Source: a virus
DNA length: 63,957 nt
IMG/VR virus record: IMGVR_UViG_3300028025_006013
Coordinates: 1-63,957 of that record
Reading direction: 5' to 3' (one strand)
Position numbers and translations under genes: made by a program. Under the pieces are notes generated by a model. That model did no database searches. It was not told the DNA's origin and saw only the letters and a program-made list of their open reading frames with translations. Shown piece after piece: positions 41,138 through 62,408 of this stretch (its first letter is position 1; each line of letters begins with the position of its first letter).

Positions 41138-41210
41138 GGGGGTATAGCTCAGTTGGTAGAGCACTACACTTGCAATGTAGAAGTCGTGGATTCGAATTCC
41201 TCTACCTCCA
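41138..41210 (+). tRNA. tRNA-Ala (anticodon UGC)
   Basis: Full cloverleaf: acceptor GGGGGTA/TACCTCC with the G3-U70 alanine identity pair, anticodon stem CTACA/TGTAG around loop CTTGCAA (anticodon TGC), T loop TTCGAAT. Discriminator A; CCA is not encoded. Reads GCA, a dominant Ala codon in the fibre genes. Confidence 0.95.
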
Positions 41211-41294: not shown

Positions 41295-41753
41295 ATGGAA
41301 ACAAAACATTGCCCTAAATGTGGCGAAACAAAAACAATCGATTTATTTCGCAACAACAAGAAACAACCAGACGGGTTGTATCGAATATGCAAAGCTTGCT
41401 GCAAGGCATACGAACAAAAAGCATACCGCAATAATCCCAAACGATATATCGAAAGGAGTGTAAAACGCATTCAATCCAACCGGGAATGGATAAACCAATA
41501 CAAACAAAATGCATCTTGTACCAGATGCAAAGAAGATAGGTGGTGGATCATTGATTTCCACCATATAAATCCAGCTGAAAAAGAATACACTATCAGTGAC
41601 ATAGCAGGGAGATTTCCATATGATATAATCATGAAAGAAATTGAGAAATGCATAACCCTATGCCGTAATTGTCATTACGAATTTCATCATTTGGAACGCA
41701 CGGAAAATATCAGTTTAGACGAATACTTAAACAACCAACAACATGGAAACTAA
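41295..41753 (+). CDS. HNH endonuclease (tandem copy 1)
   Basis: A 152-residue protein. N-terminal zinc ribbon CPKCGETK with CKAC, a second zinc pair CTRC, then the HNH core IIDFHHINP and CRNCHYEFHHLE (~112-135). Free-standing homing endonuclease type. Overlaps the next gene by 11 bases. Confidence 0.85.
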   Translation: METKHCPKCGETKTIDLFRNNKKQPDGLYRICKACCKAYEQKAYRNNPKRYIERSVKRIQSNREWINQYKQNASCTRCKEDRWWIIDFHHINPAEKEYTISDIAGRFPYDIIMKEIEKCITLCRNCHYEFHHLERTENISLDEYLNNQQHGN

Positions 41754-42201
41754 AACATGTCCCAAATGCAAGGAAACCAAACAGGTTGAATTGTTTTCCC
41801 GCAATAGACACAAAGAGGATGGCCTGCAACGAACATGTAAACAATGTATCCGAGAAGCCGGTATCAAATCATACAACAAAAACAAAAAATCCTATTTGTC
41901 ACGCGTATCAAAACACAATAAATCTATATTAGACAATGTGAACCAATACAAAGCTAACCAGACATGCCAAAAATGCGGAAACGACAAATACTATTTACTC
42001 GATTTCCACCATATTGACCCATCCATAAAAGATGATAATGTCAACACTATAGCCAGGACTAGAGGAAAGCAAGCACTATCGGACGAAATAGCAAAATGTA
42101 CCATACTATGCAAAAATTGCCACTCCGATTTCCACCACCTCGAACGTACATCCAGTATTACCATATTCGATTATTTACCTAATTTACCTCGAACTGTTTG
42201 A
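41743..42201 (+). CDS. HNH endonuclease (tandem copy 2)
   Basis: A 152-residue paralogue of the preceding gene with the same layout: CPKCKETK, CKQC, CQKC, LLDFHHIDP and CKNCHSDFHHLE. Equal lengths and similar ends indicate tandem duplication followed by divergence. Both lie between tRNA-Ala and the third adhesin cassette. Confidence 0.85.
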   Translation: METKTCPKCKETKQVELFSRNRHKEDGLQRTCKQCIREAGIKSYNKNKKSYLSRVSKHNKSILDNVNQYKANQTCQKCGNDKYYLLDFHHIDPSIKDDNVNTIARTRGKQALSDEIAKCTILCKNCHSDFHHLERTSSITIFDYLPNLPRTV

Positions 42202-43567: not shown

Positions 43568-44410
43568 ATGAAAGACATCCGCACACTATACCAACAGTAC
43601 TGCGAATCCCATTCAATCCCATTCAGACACGACAACAAAGTAAATCCATACGATGATACTACATTGTTTTGCCCAGCGGGAATGCAACAATTCAAACCGA
43701 AATTCAAAAACCCAGACAACACAACCATAGCAAACATACAATCGTGTATACGTTTGCAGGACATTGCGGAAATTGGAGACGGTACACATTTGTTGCATTT
43801 CAACATGCTTGGCTTGTTTTCATTCGGTGAAATGAACATGCAACAAGCGGTTGACTTTTGGATGGAATTCATTGAACGTGTACTCGAAATCAAAGTAGAC
43901 ACAATCACCATTCACCCCCACAAACTGGATGAGTGGAGACACATGTACGATGCGTATCCACACCTCAACATCACCACAGACGAGGAATGTATCTGGTCAG
44001 ATGGTGAGATGGGTGGCTACTGTACCGAATTTTATGTAAACGGGGTGGAAATAGGCAACATAGTTAACACGTTAGATCAATTCATAGATGTTGGATTCGG
44101 CATGGAGCGACTTGAGCTCATGGCAAATGGCGAACAAGTAAAGTCAGCGCTGGATACGCTGCGAGAAACAATCGAGCGCATCATCGACTCGGGCTACAAA
44201 CCTGGACCACAAAAGCAAGGGTACATTTTACGCAAATTGCTTCGTGAACTGTATGTACAGGGCGGAGAAATGGAGCACCCATTTTTCACCCAAGAGGTGG
44301 AACGTCAAGCGAAAGCAAAAGCGCGCTATGAGCGATTGGTAGTTAAACATCCAGGTATGCCAAAAGAGTGGTGGTTCGATACACATGGAGTAGATTTAGA
44401 TCTCTTGTAA
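43568..44410 (+). CDS. minimal alanyl-tRNA synthetase-like protein
   Basis: A 280-residue class II synthetase resembling the N-terminal part of AlaRS. Visible matches: TTLFCPAGMQQFKP (~35), SCIRLQDIAEIGD with the motif 2 Arg (~59), HFNMLGLFSFGE (~77-88), GGYCTEFYVNG (~148), IGNIVN (~161), motif 3 IDVGFGMERLE (~173-183), KQGYILRKLLREL (~215) and WWFDTHGVDLDLL at the C-terminus, equivalent to the DTYGFPxDLT end of the tRNA-recognition domain. Most of that domain, all of the editing domain and C-Ala are missing (bacterial AlaRS is ~870 residues). It lies ~380 bases upstream of an alanine-type tmRNA. Confidence 0.82.
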   Translation: MKDIRTLYQQYCESHSIPFRHDNKVNPYDDTTLFCPAGMQQFKPKFKNPDNTTIANIQSCIRLQDIAEIGDGTHLLHFNMLGLFSFGEMNMQQAVDFWMEFIERVLEIKVDTITIHPHKLDEWRHMYDAYPHLNITTDEECIWSDGEMGGYCTEFYVNGVEIGNIVNTLDQFIDVGFGMERLELMANGEQVKSALDTLRETIERIIDSGYKPGPQKQGYILRKLLRELYVQGGEMEHPFFTQEVERQAKAKARYERLVVKHPGMPKEWWFDTHGVDLDLL

Positions 44411-44624: not shown

Positions 44625-44696
44625 GCTCCGTTAGTGAAGCGGTTAACACGCTGCCCTTTCACGGCAGAAGCGCGGATTCGAATTCCGCACGGAGTA
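44625..44696 (+). tRNA. tRNA-Glu (anticodon UUC)
   Basis: Acceptor GCTCCGT/ACGGAGT (terminal G-T pair), anticodon stem CTGCC/GGCAG around CTTTCAC (anticodon TTC), T loop TTCGAAT. Discriminator A, no encoded CCA. Its 3' end directly abuts the acceptor piece of the tmRNA. Confidence 0.92.
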
Positions 44697-44786: not shown

Positions 44787-44938
44787 GGGCGTGTACTTGG
44801 ATTTGATTGCATGCGACGTACGGTATATTGAGAATTGTTTAACGCTTTAAACGGCAACCAAAACCATATGAGCATTGCTGCCTAGTAGGTAGTTTTACTC
44901 AAAGCATTTTACCCATTTGGCTTAGTTAAATGGGAACT
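44787..44938 (+). ncRNA. ssrA: permuted tmRNA, coding piece with tag GNQNHMSIAA
   Basis: Begins with acceptor strand GGGCGTG (44787-44793), which pairs with CACGTCC of the acceptor piece and gives a G3-U70 alanine identity pair. TTGGATTTGATTG (44797-44809) matches the tmRNA 5' consensus. GCATG and CGGTATA pair with the acceptor piece. The tag frame starts at GGC 44853 and reads GNQNHMSIAA followed by TAG TAG (44883-44888). A small stem GTTTA/TAAAC precedes the tag; a hairpin CCCATTT/AAATGGG (44912-44934) ends the piece just before tRNA-Ser. Confidence 0.82.
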
Positions 44939-45025
44939 GGAAGGGTGGGTGAGTGGTTTAAACCAGAGCACTTGAAATGCTCCGAACTTGAGAAAGTTCC
45001 GCGGGTTCGAAACCCGCCCCTTCCT
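44939..45025 (+). tRNA. tRNA-Ser (anticodon UGA)
   Basis: Class II tRNA: acceptor GGAAGGG/CCCTTCC, anticodon stem GAGCA/TGCTC around CTTGAAA (anticodon TGA), a long variable arm (GAACTTGAGAAAGTTC) and T arm GCGGG-TTCGAAA-CCCGC. The discriminator position is T rather than the usual G for Ser. Reads TCA, the main Ser codon of the fibre genes. Confidence 0.92.
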
Positions 45026-49183: not shown

Positions 49184-49621
49184 ATGTATAAACTGTTGGA
49201 CATACTGATGGAAACACGTATATTTGAGTTAGCATATCATCGCAAAAATGCTATGGACAAAGTACGCGACATCAGCCTCAACACAAGCATGGAATTGCTC
49301 AAAATACTAATGTACAAAGACTCCCGCAACCAAAACCATTGGCGCGGTAAATTTGATGGGTGGATGGCTGGAATCAAACGTTATTCCAAAGGTACCCTAA
49401 AAGTACATGACCTGTTCAATTTGCTATGGGTGGAGCCATTGGGTGAAATAGACCAATTGGAAGATTTGATTAGCATGGTTGAAGCCGATTACTATACACC
49501 ATCATACCATATCGACTACAATGATTTACCCGCATTGCACAACCAAATGAAAAATATATTTGCGGATATATCCAGGGATATAGTAAACAATAAACGCATA
49601 ACTATAAACAATTACATATGA
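49184..49621 (+). CDS. hypothetical helical protein
   Basis: A 145-residue protein (HRKNAMDKVRDISLNTS, HWRGKFDGWMAGIKRY). Starts 2 bases after the previous gene and overlaps the queC start. Probably co-expressed with the deazaguanine pathway; no family recognised. Confidence 0.65.
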   Translation: MYKLLDILMETRIFELAYHRKNAMDKVRDISLNTSMELLKILMYKDSRNQNHWRGKFDGWMAGIKRYSKGTLKVHDLFNLLWVEPLGEIDQLEDLISMVEADYYTPSYHIDYNDLPALHNQMKNIFADISRDIVNNKRITINNYI

Positions 49622-50424
49622 AACAAGAAAAAAAACACGCCGTAGTTTCACTGAGTGGGGGAATGGATTCAAGCACATTACTGCTACGTTGCTTAAAAGA
49701 ATTCGATACTGTAACCGCTATTTCATTTGACTATGGTCAAAAACATAGAGTAGAATTGGAACGCGCTCAATCGTTGGTAAACTATTTAAACTCAAAAGAA
49801 GACATATACATTAACTATCGCGTAATCAAATTAGACGGTTTAGTTGATTTACTTAACTCTACATTAGTGGAAGGTGGTGCAGATGTGCCTGAAGGTCACT
49901 ACGCTGAGGAAAACATGAAAGCAACTGTAGTTCCAAACCGCAACAAGATATTTGCTTCCATCACTCAAGCAATCGCTTTATCCGTAGCAGACAAAACAGG
50001 CGAAACATGTGACATTGCGTTAGGTATCCATAGCGGTGACCACTCTGTTTATCCTGATACTACTGAAGAATTTAGACAAGCAGATACACATGCATTCAGA
50101 ATAGGCAATTGGGGCTCAGAAAACGTTGGTTTCTTTACACCATACATGGAGGGAGACAAATTTACTATTCTACAAGACGGAGAAACGTTATGCCGTGAGT
50201 TAGGACTGGAATTTAATGAAGTATATAAACGCACAAATACTTCATACAAACCATACCCATCTGGTAATTCAGACTACAAATCAGCATCTTCAGTTGAACG
50301 TATTGAAGCATTCATCAAATTAGGTAAACCCGATCCAGTACAATACGAAGACGAAACTGGTGAAGTAAGTTGGGAGGTAGCCCGAGCACATGCAGAACAT
50401 GTATTAGCTTCACACAATTCGTAA
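49618..50424 (+). CDS. queC: QueC-like 7-cyano-7-deazaguanine synthase without zinc-site cysteines
   Basis: A 268-residue protein. PP-loop SLSGGMDSSTLL (~11-22), IAISFDYGQKHRVEL (~33-48), PNRNKIFASIT. In canonical QueC the C-terminus carries SCY...C-x2-C-x2-C-VER; here the equivalent is TSYKPY ... KSASSVERIEAF (~207-230), with Ser at all or nearly all of the Cys positions. The enzyme would convert CDG to preQ0 with ATP and ammonia, but the missing structural zinc site makes it a divergent subtype. Confidence 0.85.
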   Translation: MKQEKKHAVVSLSGGMDSSTLLLRCLKEFDTVTAISFDYGQKHRVELERAQSLVNYLNSKEDIYINYRVIKLDGLVDLLNSTLVEGGADVPEGHYAEENMKATVVPNRNKIFASITQAIALSVADKTGETCDIALGIHSGDHSVYPDTTEEFRQADTHAFRIGNWGSENVGFFTPYMEGDKFTILQDGETLCRELGLEFNEVYKRTNTSYKPYPSGNSDYKSASSVERIEAFIKLGKPDPVQYEDETGEVSWEVARAHAEHVLASHNS

Positions 50425-60773: not shown

Positions 60774-62408
60774 ATGAGTAAACAAATCAAACTTGGTGCT
60801 GAAGCACGTAAAAAATTAGCAAACGGAATCGATACATTAGCAGACGCTGTGGTATCCAGTTTAGGCCCGCAAGGTAGAAACACAGTATACTTCAATGACG
60901 GTGTTGCTGTATCAACAAAAGACGGTGTATCTATCGCGAAACACATTTCGGAATTGGAAGATCCAATCGAAAACTTGGGCGCGCAAATGATCAAGCAAGC
61001 CGCAATCAAAACAGCAGACAATGCGGGTGACGGTACAACTACATCCACATTATTAGCTCGTGAAATCGTTAAGCAAGGTTTGCAACGTTTAAACGAGGGT
61101 GGAAACGCAGTTGAAATCAAACGCGGTATCGACGATGCAGTAAAGCAAGTAATCGAATCACTTAAACAAAACTCGGAAAAAATCACTTCGGAAGAGCAAC
61201 TTGAGCAAATCGCTTCCATATCTGCAAACAATGACCCAGAAACTGGTAAATTGATTGCTCGCGCAATGGAGAAAGTAGGCCGTGAAGGTGTGGTACACAT
61301 CGAGGAATCTCGCACTGGCGAAACATACCTGGAGGTAGTTGAAGGTATGCAATTTGACCGTGGCTACAAGTCACCATATTTCGTTACCAACAACAACAAT
61401 ATGTCAGCTGTATTAACTGACGCGTTAGTGTTGATCGCTGACCATAGATTCACACAAGTGAAAGAATTGCTACCTATTTTAGATGGTGTAGCTCGCACTG
61501 GAAAATCGTTACTTATCATCGCGGAGGACATTGACGGTGAAGCGCTAGCAACACTAATTGTAAACAAAATGCGTGGTACATTAAAAGTGGTAGCTGTTAA
61601 AGCACCTGACTTTGGCGACCGTAGAAAGTTGATCTTGGAAGATATCGCTGTATTGACTGGCGGTACCGTATTCGACAAAGACAAGGGTATGAAATTGGAC
61701 AAATTCCAGGACGAGTGGTTCGGTAAAGCGCGTACAATCACTGTAACCAAAGAACAAACCACAATCGTGGATGGTCAAGGTGCAGAGGAAACAATCACTA
61801 AACGTGTGGAAGAGTTGGAAGCACAAATCGATAAATCAACCACTCCATTTGAAACTGAAAAATTGCAGGAACGTTTGGCAAAATTCATTGGTGGTGTTGC
61901 TTTAGTGCACGTAGGTGGAAACACTGAAACCGAAATGAAAGAAAAGAAAGACCGTGTAGACGATGCATTGCACGCAACTAAATGTGCTTTGGAAGACGGT
62001 ATTGTTCCTGGTGGTGGTACAGCATTATTATATGCTAGAGAAAACATCAAATTCACTGAGGACGCAAGTAGTGATTTCGTTTACGGTCAAAACATCGTAT
62101 ACAAATCTTGCGGTAAACCGTTTGAGCAAATCTTAACCAACGCTGGATATGATCAAGTTGATTCAATCATTTTATCGCGCCAATTACGCGATGGAGACGC
62201 GAAATGGAGCGGATACAACATCAAAACAAAATCCATCGTAGACATGAAAGAAGCAGGCATACTTGACCCAACCAAAGTAACCCGCAACGCATTATTGAAT
62301 GGATCCAGTATCGCAGGTACTATTTTATTAACCGAGTGTGTTATCGTAGACAAGCCAGAAGACAAGAAAGAAGACGGTGGCTACGATCCATCTCAAATGA
62401 TGATGTAA
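60774..62408 (+). CDS. groEL: GroEL chaperonin
   Basis: A 544-residue full-length chaperonin. SSLGPQGRNTVY (~30), GDGTTTSTLLA (~85-95, nucleotide binding), apical PYFVTNNNNM, and DRVDDALHATKCALEDGIVPGGG (~394-416, with the catalytic Asp). The C-terminus ends YDPSQMMM. Together with GroES it may fold large phage proteins such as the sheath, fibres or capsid. Confidence 0.95.
   Translation: MSKQIKLGAEARKKLANGIDTLADAVVSSLGPQGRNTVYFNDGVAVSTKDGVSIAKHISELEDPIENLGAQMIKQAAIKTADNAGDGTTTSTLLAREIVKQGLQRLNEGGNAVEIKRGIDDAVKQVIESLKQNSEKITSEEQLEQIASISANNDPETGKLIARAMEKVGREGVVHIEESRTGETYLEVVEGMQFDRGYKSPYFVTNNNNMSAVLTDALVLIADHRFTQVKELLPILDGVARTGKSLLIIAEDIDGEALATLIVNKMRGTLKVVAVKAPDFGDRRKLILEDIAVLTGGTVFDKDKGMKLDKFQDEWFGKARTITVTKEQTTIVDGQGAEETITKRVEELEAQIDKSTTPFETEKLQERLAKFIGGVALVHVGGNTETEMKEKKDRVDDALHATKCALEDGIVPGGGTALLYARENIKFTEDASSDFVYGQNIVYKSCGKPFEQILTNAGYDQVDSIILSRQLRDGDAKWSGYNIKTKSIVDMKEAGILDPTKVTRNALLNGSSIAGTILLTECVIVDKPEDKKEDGGYDPSQMMM

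What the first reader, a model, noticed from the sequence alone, without database searches (positions are those of the whole stretch)
43568..44410. 280-residue alanyl-tRNA synthetase-like protein beside an alanine-type tmRNA
Motifs 2 and 3 and the KQGYILRKLLREL and FDTHGVDLDLL segments of AlaRS appear in order, but the protein is about a third of normal length and lacks the editing and C-Ala domains. Catalytic residues (motif 2 Arg, NIV, DVGFGMER) are retained. AlaRS recognises mainly G3-U70, which a small enzyme could still read, so this may be a phage mini-AlaRS dedicated to tmRNA or tRNA-Ala.
Basis: partly seen in the sequence, partly recalled or inferred. Interest (0 to 1): 0.88.

Follow-up and report, generated by a model that had tools for sequence, protein, structure and literature searches.

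The report
Phage mini alanyl-tRNA synthetase beside tmRNA
A virus of bacteria carries a stripped-down, one-third-size version of the enzyme that loads the amino acid alanine onto RNA; it belongs to a large, previously unnamed phage family, and in distant giant-phage relatives the enzyme can apparently be made only after the ribosome slips one letter at an alanine codon, which could be a built-in alanine sensor.

Summary
Confirmed: window 43568-44410 encodes a 280-aa alanyl-tRNA synthetase (AlaRS)-like protein. It is under purifying selection, keeps the AlaRS active-site residues and the C-terminal FDTHG peptide that reads G3-U70, and its AlphaFold model matches AlaRS structures over 276 of 280 residues (Z 23.9; next family 14.9). 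About 70 viral contigs, two Rhizobiales contigs and a 634-kb huge phage encode relatives of about 270-300 aa, without editing and C-Ala domains. Phage tRNA-Ala and tmRNA keep G3-U70. I read it as a working minimal AlaRS for tRNA-Ala and tmRNA. Dedication to tmRNA is not supported: a 95%-identical relative lacks tmRNA, and tmRNA is common in related huge phages without AlaRS.

Unexpected: in 19 relatives, including the family's deepest branches, the enzyme ORF lies out of frame behind a short leader (M..[R/L][D/N]A). Conservation stops exactly after RRAC-GC, and 8 of 17 independent copies have a stem starting at +7 nt. This looks like programmed -1 frameshifting at an alanine codon, a possible Ala-tRNA sensor; a 2016 review knew no functional product of hungry-codon frameshifting. 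The window's own gene has a plain ATG. No activity has been tested.

The parts
43568..44410 (+). mini-AlaRS gene, 280 aa, ordinary in-frame ATG
43733..43828 (+). class II motif 2 (NIQSCIRLQDIAEIGDGTHLLHFNMLGLFSFG; Arg62 = motif 2 Arg, invariant)
43994..44032 (+). W143 to F155: W-SDGEMGGYCTEF, counterpart of FWQMGDTGPCGPCTEI in E. coli AlaRS; W143, C152, E154 invariant in 29 members
44048..44068 (+). EIGNIVN (residues 161-167), counterpart of EIWNIVF; alanine pocket Val166
44084..44110 (+). motif 3 IDVGFGMER (residues 173-181); Asp174 and Arg181 invariant
44213..44251 (+). KQGYILRKLLREL, counterpart of the ENRGYVLRRIIRRA helix of the tRNA-recognition domain
44375..44407 (+). C-terminal FDTHGVDLDLL, counterpart of the YDTYGFPVDLT peptide that reads G3-U70
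   Evidence: PMC6451123
44711..44885 (+). circularly permuted tmRNA, Rfam RF04321, 64.2 bits
   Evidence: T-arm compensatory changes against L002
44753..44763 (+). tmRNA 3' acceptor strand CACGTCC + ACCA (U70, encoded CCA)
44787..44793 (+). tmRNA 5' acceptor strand GGGCGTG (G3)
44853..44888 (+). tmRNA tag reading frame GNQNHMSIAA**
41138..41210 (+). tRNA-Ala(UGC), acceptor GGGGGUA/UACCUCC-A = G3-U70
44625..44696 (+). tRNA-Glu(UUC)
44939..45025 (+). tRNA-Ser(UGA)

Best explanation
The ORF encodes a phage-specific minimal alanyl-tRNA synthetase. Shown: the class II AlaRS catalytic core is complete (Met39, motif 2 Arg62, Trp143, Val166, Asp174, motif 3 Arg181); the family is widespread and under purifying selection; the helical tRNA-recognition domain is cut down to the counterparts of two pieces of cellular AlaRS (the GYVLRR helix and the terminal peptide that contacts G3-U70); the editing and C-Ala domains are gone. 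Inferred: it makes Ala-AMP and transfers alanine to RNAs with a G3-U70 acceptor, i.e. the phage's and host's tRNA-Ala and the phage tmRNA, keeping up the supply of Ala-tRNA and Ala-tmRNA during infection; serine or glycine misloaded by it would have to be cleared by host editing factors in trans. Also inferred: in the ancestral form kept by huge-phage relatives the enzyme is made by -1 frameshifting at an alanine codon of a short leader, and the window's lineage replaced this by a plain ATG.
For: Family hits. Fold: model pLDDT 90.4, pTM 0.84; AlaRS Z 23.9 over 276 of 280 residues, including tRNA-bound A. fulgidus AlaRS 3wqy (Z 19.0); next GlyRS alpha Z 14.9. Invariant residues across 29 members map onto E. 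coli AlaRS. About 70 viral contigs, about 270-300 aa each. dN/dS 0.05-0.12. tRNA-Ala and all phage tmRNAs whose acceptor could be assembled keep G3-U70. FDTHG matches the G3-U70 peptide (PMC6451123). tRNA-Ala lies within 0.4 kb of the gene in LR745206 and within 2.4 kb in the window.
Against: No biochemistry. Several residues of motif 2 differ from cellular AlaRS (RHHTFFEM -> THLLHFNM). The position aligned with E. coli Asn303 is Pro in the window protein (Asn in some relatives), and the Asp of FDTHG is Glu, Ser or Asn in some relatives. L001 and many other contigs carry the enzyme without a tRNA-Ala or tmRNA gene nearby. The score is far below the curated alaS cut-off (80 vs 457 bits), mostly because two thirds of the enzyme is missing.
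Confidence: 0.7

Rival explanations
1. The enzyme is dedicated to the phage tmRNA rather than to tRNA-Ala.
For: Adjacent permuted tmRNA with G3-U70 in the window and L002; tmRNA over cut-off in 11 of 32 mini-AlaRS records, against 2.3% of phage genomes in a published survey (PMC9004378); LR745206 encodes SmpB.
Against: L001, 95% identical, has no tmRNA. 21 of 32 records show none. 9 of 11 records with the second gene family also carry a permuted tmRNA, and the 9 of these tested have no AlaRS hit, so tmRNA tracks phage type and not the enzyme.
Confidence: 0.1
2. It is a class II aminoacyl ligase that has left translation and attaches alanine to a protein or small molecule, as truncated SerRS-like and LysRS-like paralogs do.
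For: Precedent for truncated class II paralogs (background knowledge); many contigs show no tRNA gene within 10 kb.
Against: The C-terminal acceptor-stem pieces are conserved across the whole family (Trp268 and Thr272 invariant, Gly274 over 90%); huge-phage members sit inside tRNA arrays.
Confidence: 0.12
3. Catalytically dead or regulatory AlaRS fragment that only binds tRNA-Ala.
For: Missing much of the tRNA-recognition domain; altered motif 2 loop; motif 3 Glu replaced by Ser or Gln in some relatives.
Against: All catalytic and amino-acid-pocket positions examined are invariant among members that are only about 50% identical, with low dN/dS.
Confidence: 0.08
4. For the out-of-frame relatives: the ORF starts by non-AUG initiation or reinitiation, so there is no frameshift.
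For: L061 has a TTG one codon after the site; a few loci have an in-frame ATT or CTG there; L065, L075, L076 and L108 have an in-frame ATG further upstream.
Against: No common in-frame start codon: 14 of 19 loci have no ATG, GTG or TTG from the upstream in-frame stop to at least codon +11. Where present, the Shine-Dalgarno serves the out-of-frame ATG. Conservation is maximal at RRACGC and stops right after it. The leader's own stop lies at different distances. A stem-loop at a fixed +7 nt is a frameshift hallmark.
Confidence: 0.2

Closest known systems
Cellular bacterial AlaRS (alaS, TIGR00344; PF01411 catalytic domain)
   Same: Class II catalytic fold, motifs 2 and 3, alanine pocket, G3-U70 peptide; fold match over 276 residues
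   Different: 280 instead of 876 aa; no editing or C-Ala domain; stretch after NIV and most of the helical tRNA-recognition domain deleted; about 20% identity
Engineered N-terminal AlaRS fragments such as the E. coli 441-residue catalytic fragment (PDB 3hxu)
   Same: Catalytic core plus acceptor-stem recognition
   Different: Those are made by truncation and are about 160 residues longer; this is a natural, conserved stand-alone family
Aminoacyl-tRNA synthetases of huge phages (Al-Shayeb et al. 2020, PMC7162821)
   Same: Phage-encoded synthetases together with tRNAs, tmRNA and SmpB; the 634-kb record LR745206 is a phage of this kind
   Different: The word alanyl does not occur in its main text; LR745206 has no annotation, and its mini-AlaRS has no in-frame ATG
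Permuted tmRNA of marine phages (PMC9004378; RF04321, PMC11915505)
   Same: Two-piece permuted phage tmRNA
   Different: PMC9004378 does not mention an alanyl enzyme
Programmed frameshifts such as prfB and dnaX; doublet decoding of GCA by tRNA-Ser3 (PMC5009743, PMC12202706)
   Same: Autoregulatory recoding exists; -1 shift at GCA alanine codons is documented; stem-loop about 5 nt after the A-site codon
   Different: No X_XXY_YYZ slippery heptamer; the enzyme would feed back on charging of its own codon

Membership tests
AlaRS (class II, PF01411) | AlaRS catalytic fold | tested here: met
   Top structural matches are all AlaRS, Z 19-24; next GlyRS alpha 14.9
AlaRS (class II, PF01411) | Pfam tRNA-synt_2c curated cut-off | tested here: met
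   80.2 bits vs 30.3
AlaRS (class II, PF01411) | Motif 2 Arg, motif 3 Arg, alanine pocket residues | tested here: met
   Met39, Arg62, Trp143, Val166, Asp174, Arg181 invariant; which residues form the pocket is background knowledge
AlaRS (class II, PF01411) | Y/F-D/E-S/T-H/Y-G peptide that reads G3-U70 | tested here: met
   FDTHG at 270-274 (PMC6451123). Position aligned with E. coli Asn303 is Pro214
AlaRS (class II, PF01411) | Alanylation of tRNA-Ala | not testable with these tools
   needs enzyme assay
alaS equivalog (TIGR00344) | Curated whole-protein cut-off | tested here: not met
   80 bits vs 457
alaS equivalog (TIGR00344) | Editing domain and C-Ala domain | tested here: not met
   No such Pfam hit; protein ends at the G3-U70 peptide
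Permuted tmRNA (RF04321) | Covariance model over cut-off, Ala-type acceptor with G3-U70, tag frame with stop | tested here: met
   64.2 bits vs 47; G3-U70; GNQNHMSIAA; compensatory T-arm changes
Programmed -1 frameshift (relatives, not the window gene) | Leader frame with start, product frame without usable start | tested here: met
   14 of 19 loci have none up to at least codon +11; in the other 5 an in-frame start exists
Programmed -1 frameshift (relatives, not the window gene) | Slippery heptamer X_XXY_YYZ | tested here: not met
   Site is RRAC-GCN
Programmed -1 frameshift (relatives, not the window gene) | Stem-loop 5-9 nt downstream | tested here: inconclusive
   At exactly +7 in 8 of 17 independent loci, with covariation in one clade; not found in the rest
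Programmed -1 frameshift (relatives, not the window gene) | Trans-frame protein product | not testable with these tools
   needs proteomics or reporter assay

The most novel reading that the evidence does not exclude
The ancestral phage mini-AlaRS is made only when a ribosome shifts -1 at an alanine codon (RRAC-GCN, often with a stem-loop at +7) of a short leader. Shortage of Ala-tRNA makes that codon hungry and raises AlaRS synthesis: a translational feedback loop in which a synthetase senses the charging of its own tRNA. Related huge phages without AlaRS use the same leader for another small protein, i.e. a general Ala-tRNA alarm.
Probability: 0.35. Interest if true: 0.92.

Novelty: new variant of a known kind. 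Interest (0 to 1): 0.75.

Why it matters
It shows how small a natural AlaRS can get: the catalytic core plus the acceptor-stem pieces that face G3-U70, which makes the 'second genetic code' idea directly testable in a natural 280-residue enzyme with no editing. If the frameshift in the relatives is real and answers to Ala-tRNA, it would supply a natural example of hungry-codon frameshifting that yields a functional trans-frame product, a case for which the 2016 review of recoding says no examples are known (PMC5009743), and it would give a simple genetic sensor of tRNA charging.

Tried and rejected
Decayed or chance gene: rejected by about 70 relatives and low dN/dS. Other class II fold: rejected. 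tmRNA-only role: rejected by L001 and by the no-AlaRS records. ARAGORN tmRNA coordinates: rejected, they overlap two tRNAs. Genome-collection scan with P0001 alone found nothing. SmpB in the window: none (the record may be a fragment). Assembly error for the out-of-frame start: unlikely, since the same arrangement recurs in many unrelated assemblies and in the public phage record LR745206. Canonical slippery heptamer: not present. Second leader-carrying protein family as an AlaRS fragment: profile comparison gave probability 0.3% and the fold search no hit under E 1, so unsupported; its function is unknown. Papers: no report of a phage mini-AlaRS or of frameshifting in an AlaRS gene was found, but only open-licence papers were searchable.

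Full report
OBSERVATION. AlaRS is the only family it clearly resembles: PF01411 E 1.6e-22, TIGR00344 E 1e-22, and AlaRS crystal structures by sequence. The window is a 63,957-base IMG/VR virus record with a contractile-tail phage gene set: tail sheath, UvsX-like recombinase, DnaB-like helicase, ribonucleotide reductase, family B DNA polymerase.

ANATOMY. Aligned with E. coli AlaRS the protein keeps AGM (Met39), motif 2 Arg62, FSFG, W143, CTE, EIGNIV, motif 3 IDVGFGMER, the GYILRKLLREL helix and ends with FDTHGVDLDLL. It lacks the stretch after NIV, most of the helical tRNA-recognition domain between the last two segments, the editing domain and C-Ala. Most of these positions are invariant or nearly so in 29 members. 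The AlphaFold model (pLDDT 90.4) matches AlaRS structures over 276 of 280 residues at Z up to 23.9, including tRNA-bound A. fulgidus AlaRS (Z 19.0); GlyRS alpha follows at 14.9. In A. [quoted passage not shown] The phage protein ends with Phe-Asp-Thr-His-Gly plus six residues. So evolution appears to have kept the catalytic core and the part that reads the acceptor stem.

RNA SUBSTRATES. A permuted tmRNA (RF04321) lies 300 bp downstream; acceptor GGGCGUG/CACGUCC-ACCA gives G3-U70. Against L002 its T-arm changes in compensation (CCAGG/CCTGG vs CTGGG/CCCAG) while the tag GNQNHMSIAA is identical. tRNA-Ala(UGC) with G3-U70 is at 41138. Phage tRNA-Ala near relatives and phage tmRNAs of relatives keep G3-U70 wherever I could assemble the acceptor; ARAGORN's ends include one to three CCA bases, so the printed '3:70' letters must be shifted, and the clear tRNA-Ala then show U70 in ...UCC-A.

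FAMILY. About 70 IMG/VR contigs encode it, plus the 634-kb phage LR745206, which also encodes SmpB and 61 tRNA matches, and two Rhizobiales assemblies that also have a full-length alaS. Many carriers are huge phages with tRNA arrays. In the tree the phage family is separate from four cellular AlaRS. tmRNA over cut-off occurs in 11 of 32 mini-AlaRS records, but L001 (95% identical) has none, and 9 of 11 records with the second gene family described below carry a permuted tmRNA; the 9 IMG/VR records among these have no AlaRS hit. So the enzyme is not tied to tmRNA.

UNEXPECTED: OUT-OF-FRAME LEADER. In 19 relatives (L008, L034, L051, L059-L063, L065, L072, L075, L076, L098, L101, L108, L143, L144, L155, L161) the AlaRS frame lacks an ordinary start at the expected place. 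A start codon, often with a strong GGAGG, opens a short leader in another frame: MSQRDA*, MTSRDA*, MKRLDAF*, MTPLNAM*, and so on, and the AlaRS ORF continues in the -1 frame. In 14 of 19 there is no ATG, GTG or TTG in frame from the upstream stop to at least codon +11. A scan of 2.9 million viral contigs for GGAGGNNGYYATGNNNNNGCNGGACGC gave only four contigs, all in front of AlaRS, two of them new and very divergent. The AAACGC version found 16 contigs: AlaRS in four, other genes, mostly one second family, in the rest. Conservation ends exactly after RRAC-GC; the next base is free, although the pattern searches select for the upstream part in some loci. The leader type occupies the deepest branches of the tree and plain ATG starts are scattered inside it, so the leader looks ancestral and the window's clade derived (quick tree with some long branches).

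A stem-loop starts exactly at the seventh base after GC, i.e. five bases after the GCN codon, in 7 of 17 independent loci as the best local hairpin (among 29 possible starts; roughly 1e-6 if starts were uniform, my own estimate), and L061 has a perfect 6-bp G-C stem starting there. In L008/L062/L063/L072/L098 the stem pairs in 98% of cells with compensatory changes, covariation 0.43 against 0.215 for shuffles and 0.01-0.11 for slid versions. Plain-start relatives have weaker structure (mean z -0.8 vs -2.65, Mann-Whitney p 0.008; near copies were included). About half of the leaders show no such stem.

READING. A programmed -1 frameshift with NAC in the P site and GCN (Ala) in the A site. The -1 frame is what doublet decoding of GC gives, and tRNA-Ser3 is known to do this on GCA (PMC12202706). 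Because the gene makes Ala-tRNA, a hungry Ala codon would raise AlaRS: an autoregulatory loop. This last step is a hypothesis. Nine IMG/VR records carry the same leader before a second small protein family or singletons (about 105-144 aa, no fold match) and have no AlaRS, while eleven with AlaRS lack that family; a second leader-driven gene weakens an AlaRS-specific story but fits a general Ala-tRNA sensor. The 2016 recoding review states that no examples are known of hungry-codon frameshifting giving a trans-frame protein with a function specific for starvation (PMC5009743).

VERDICT. It is a new, widespread, minimal variant of a known enzyme. The frameshift leader of its relatives is the most surprising part and is cheap to test with a reporter.

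Noticed in passing
L008 11966, L034, L051, L059, L060, L061, L062, L065, L075, L098, L101, L108, L143, L144, L155, L161 (just upstream of the mini-AlaRS ORF): Out-of-frame leader mini-ORF M..[R/L][D/N]A with the AlaRS ORF in the -1 frame, conserved RRAC-GCN site and a stem-loop at +7 in about half of them: candidate programmed -1 frameshift at an alanine codon.
   Followed up: yes
L149 1068-1451, L151, L154, L156, L157, L158, L159, L160, L162, L147 (broken copy): A second gene family of about 105-144 aa carries the same leader in huge phages that have no AlaRS hit; relatives with ordinary starts exist in cultured Acidovorax phage ACF1 and Xanthomonas phages XacN1 and X1. Function unknown, model mostly helical.
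   Followed up: partly
L076 near 10246 and L138/L070 near 10306: Mini-AlaRS reading frame broken by further frame changes in a Rhizobiales contig and one IMG/VR contig; may be errors or decay.
   Followed up: no
L209-L217: tmRNA tags of these phages vary widely (e.g. ANDNVAVSEYALAA, VTAPKAMAMAAAA, a long tag in L217); both permuted and standard forms occur in phages with mini-AlaRS.
   Followed up: partly
60774-62408: Phage-encoded Cpn60/TCP-1 chaperonin (PF00118, E 4.5e-69).
   Followed up: no
49618-50424: Phage QueC queuosine biosynthesis enzyme (PF06508, E 2.3e-37).
   Followed up: no
41295-41753 and 41743-42201: Two tandem paralogous small zinc/HNH-like proteins right after the tRNA-Ala gene.
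   Followed up: no
L012, L013, L062, L072: ARAGORN reports tRNA-like genes with two- or four-base anticodons in some leader-carrying huge phages; possible odd tRNAs or false calls.
   Followed up: no
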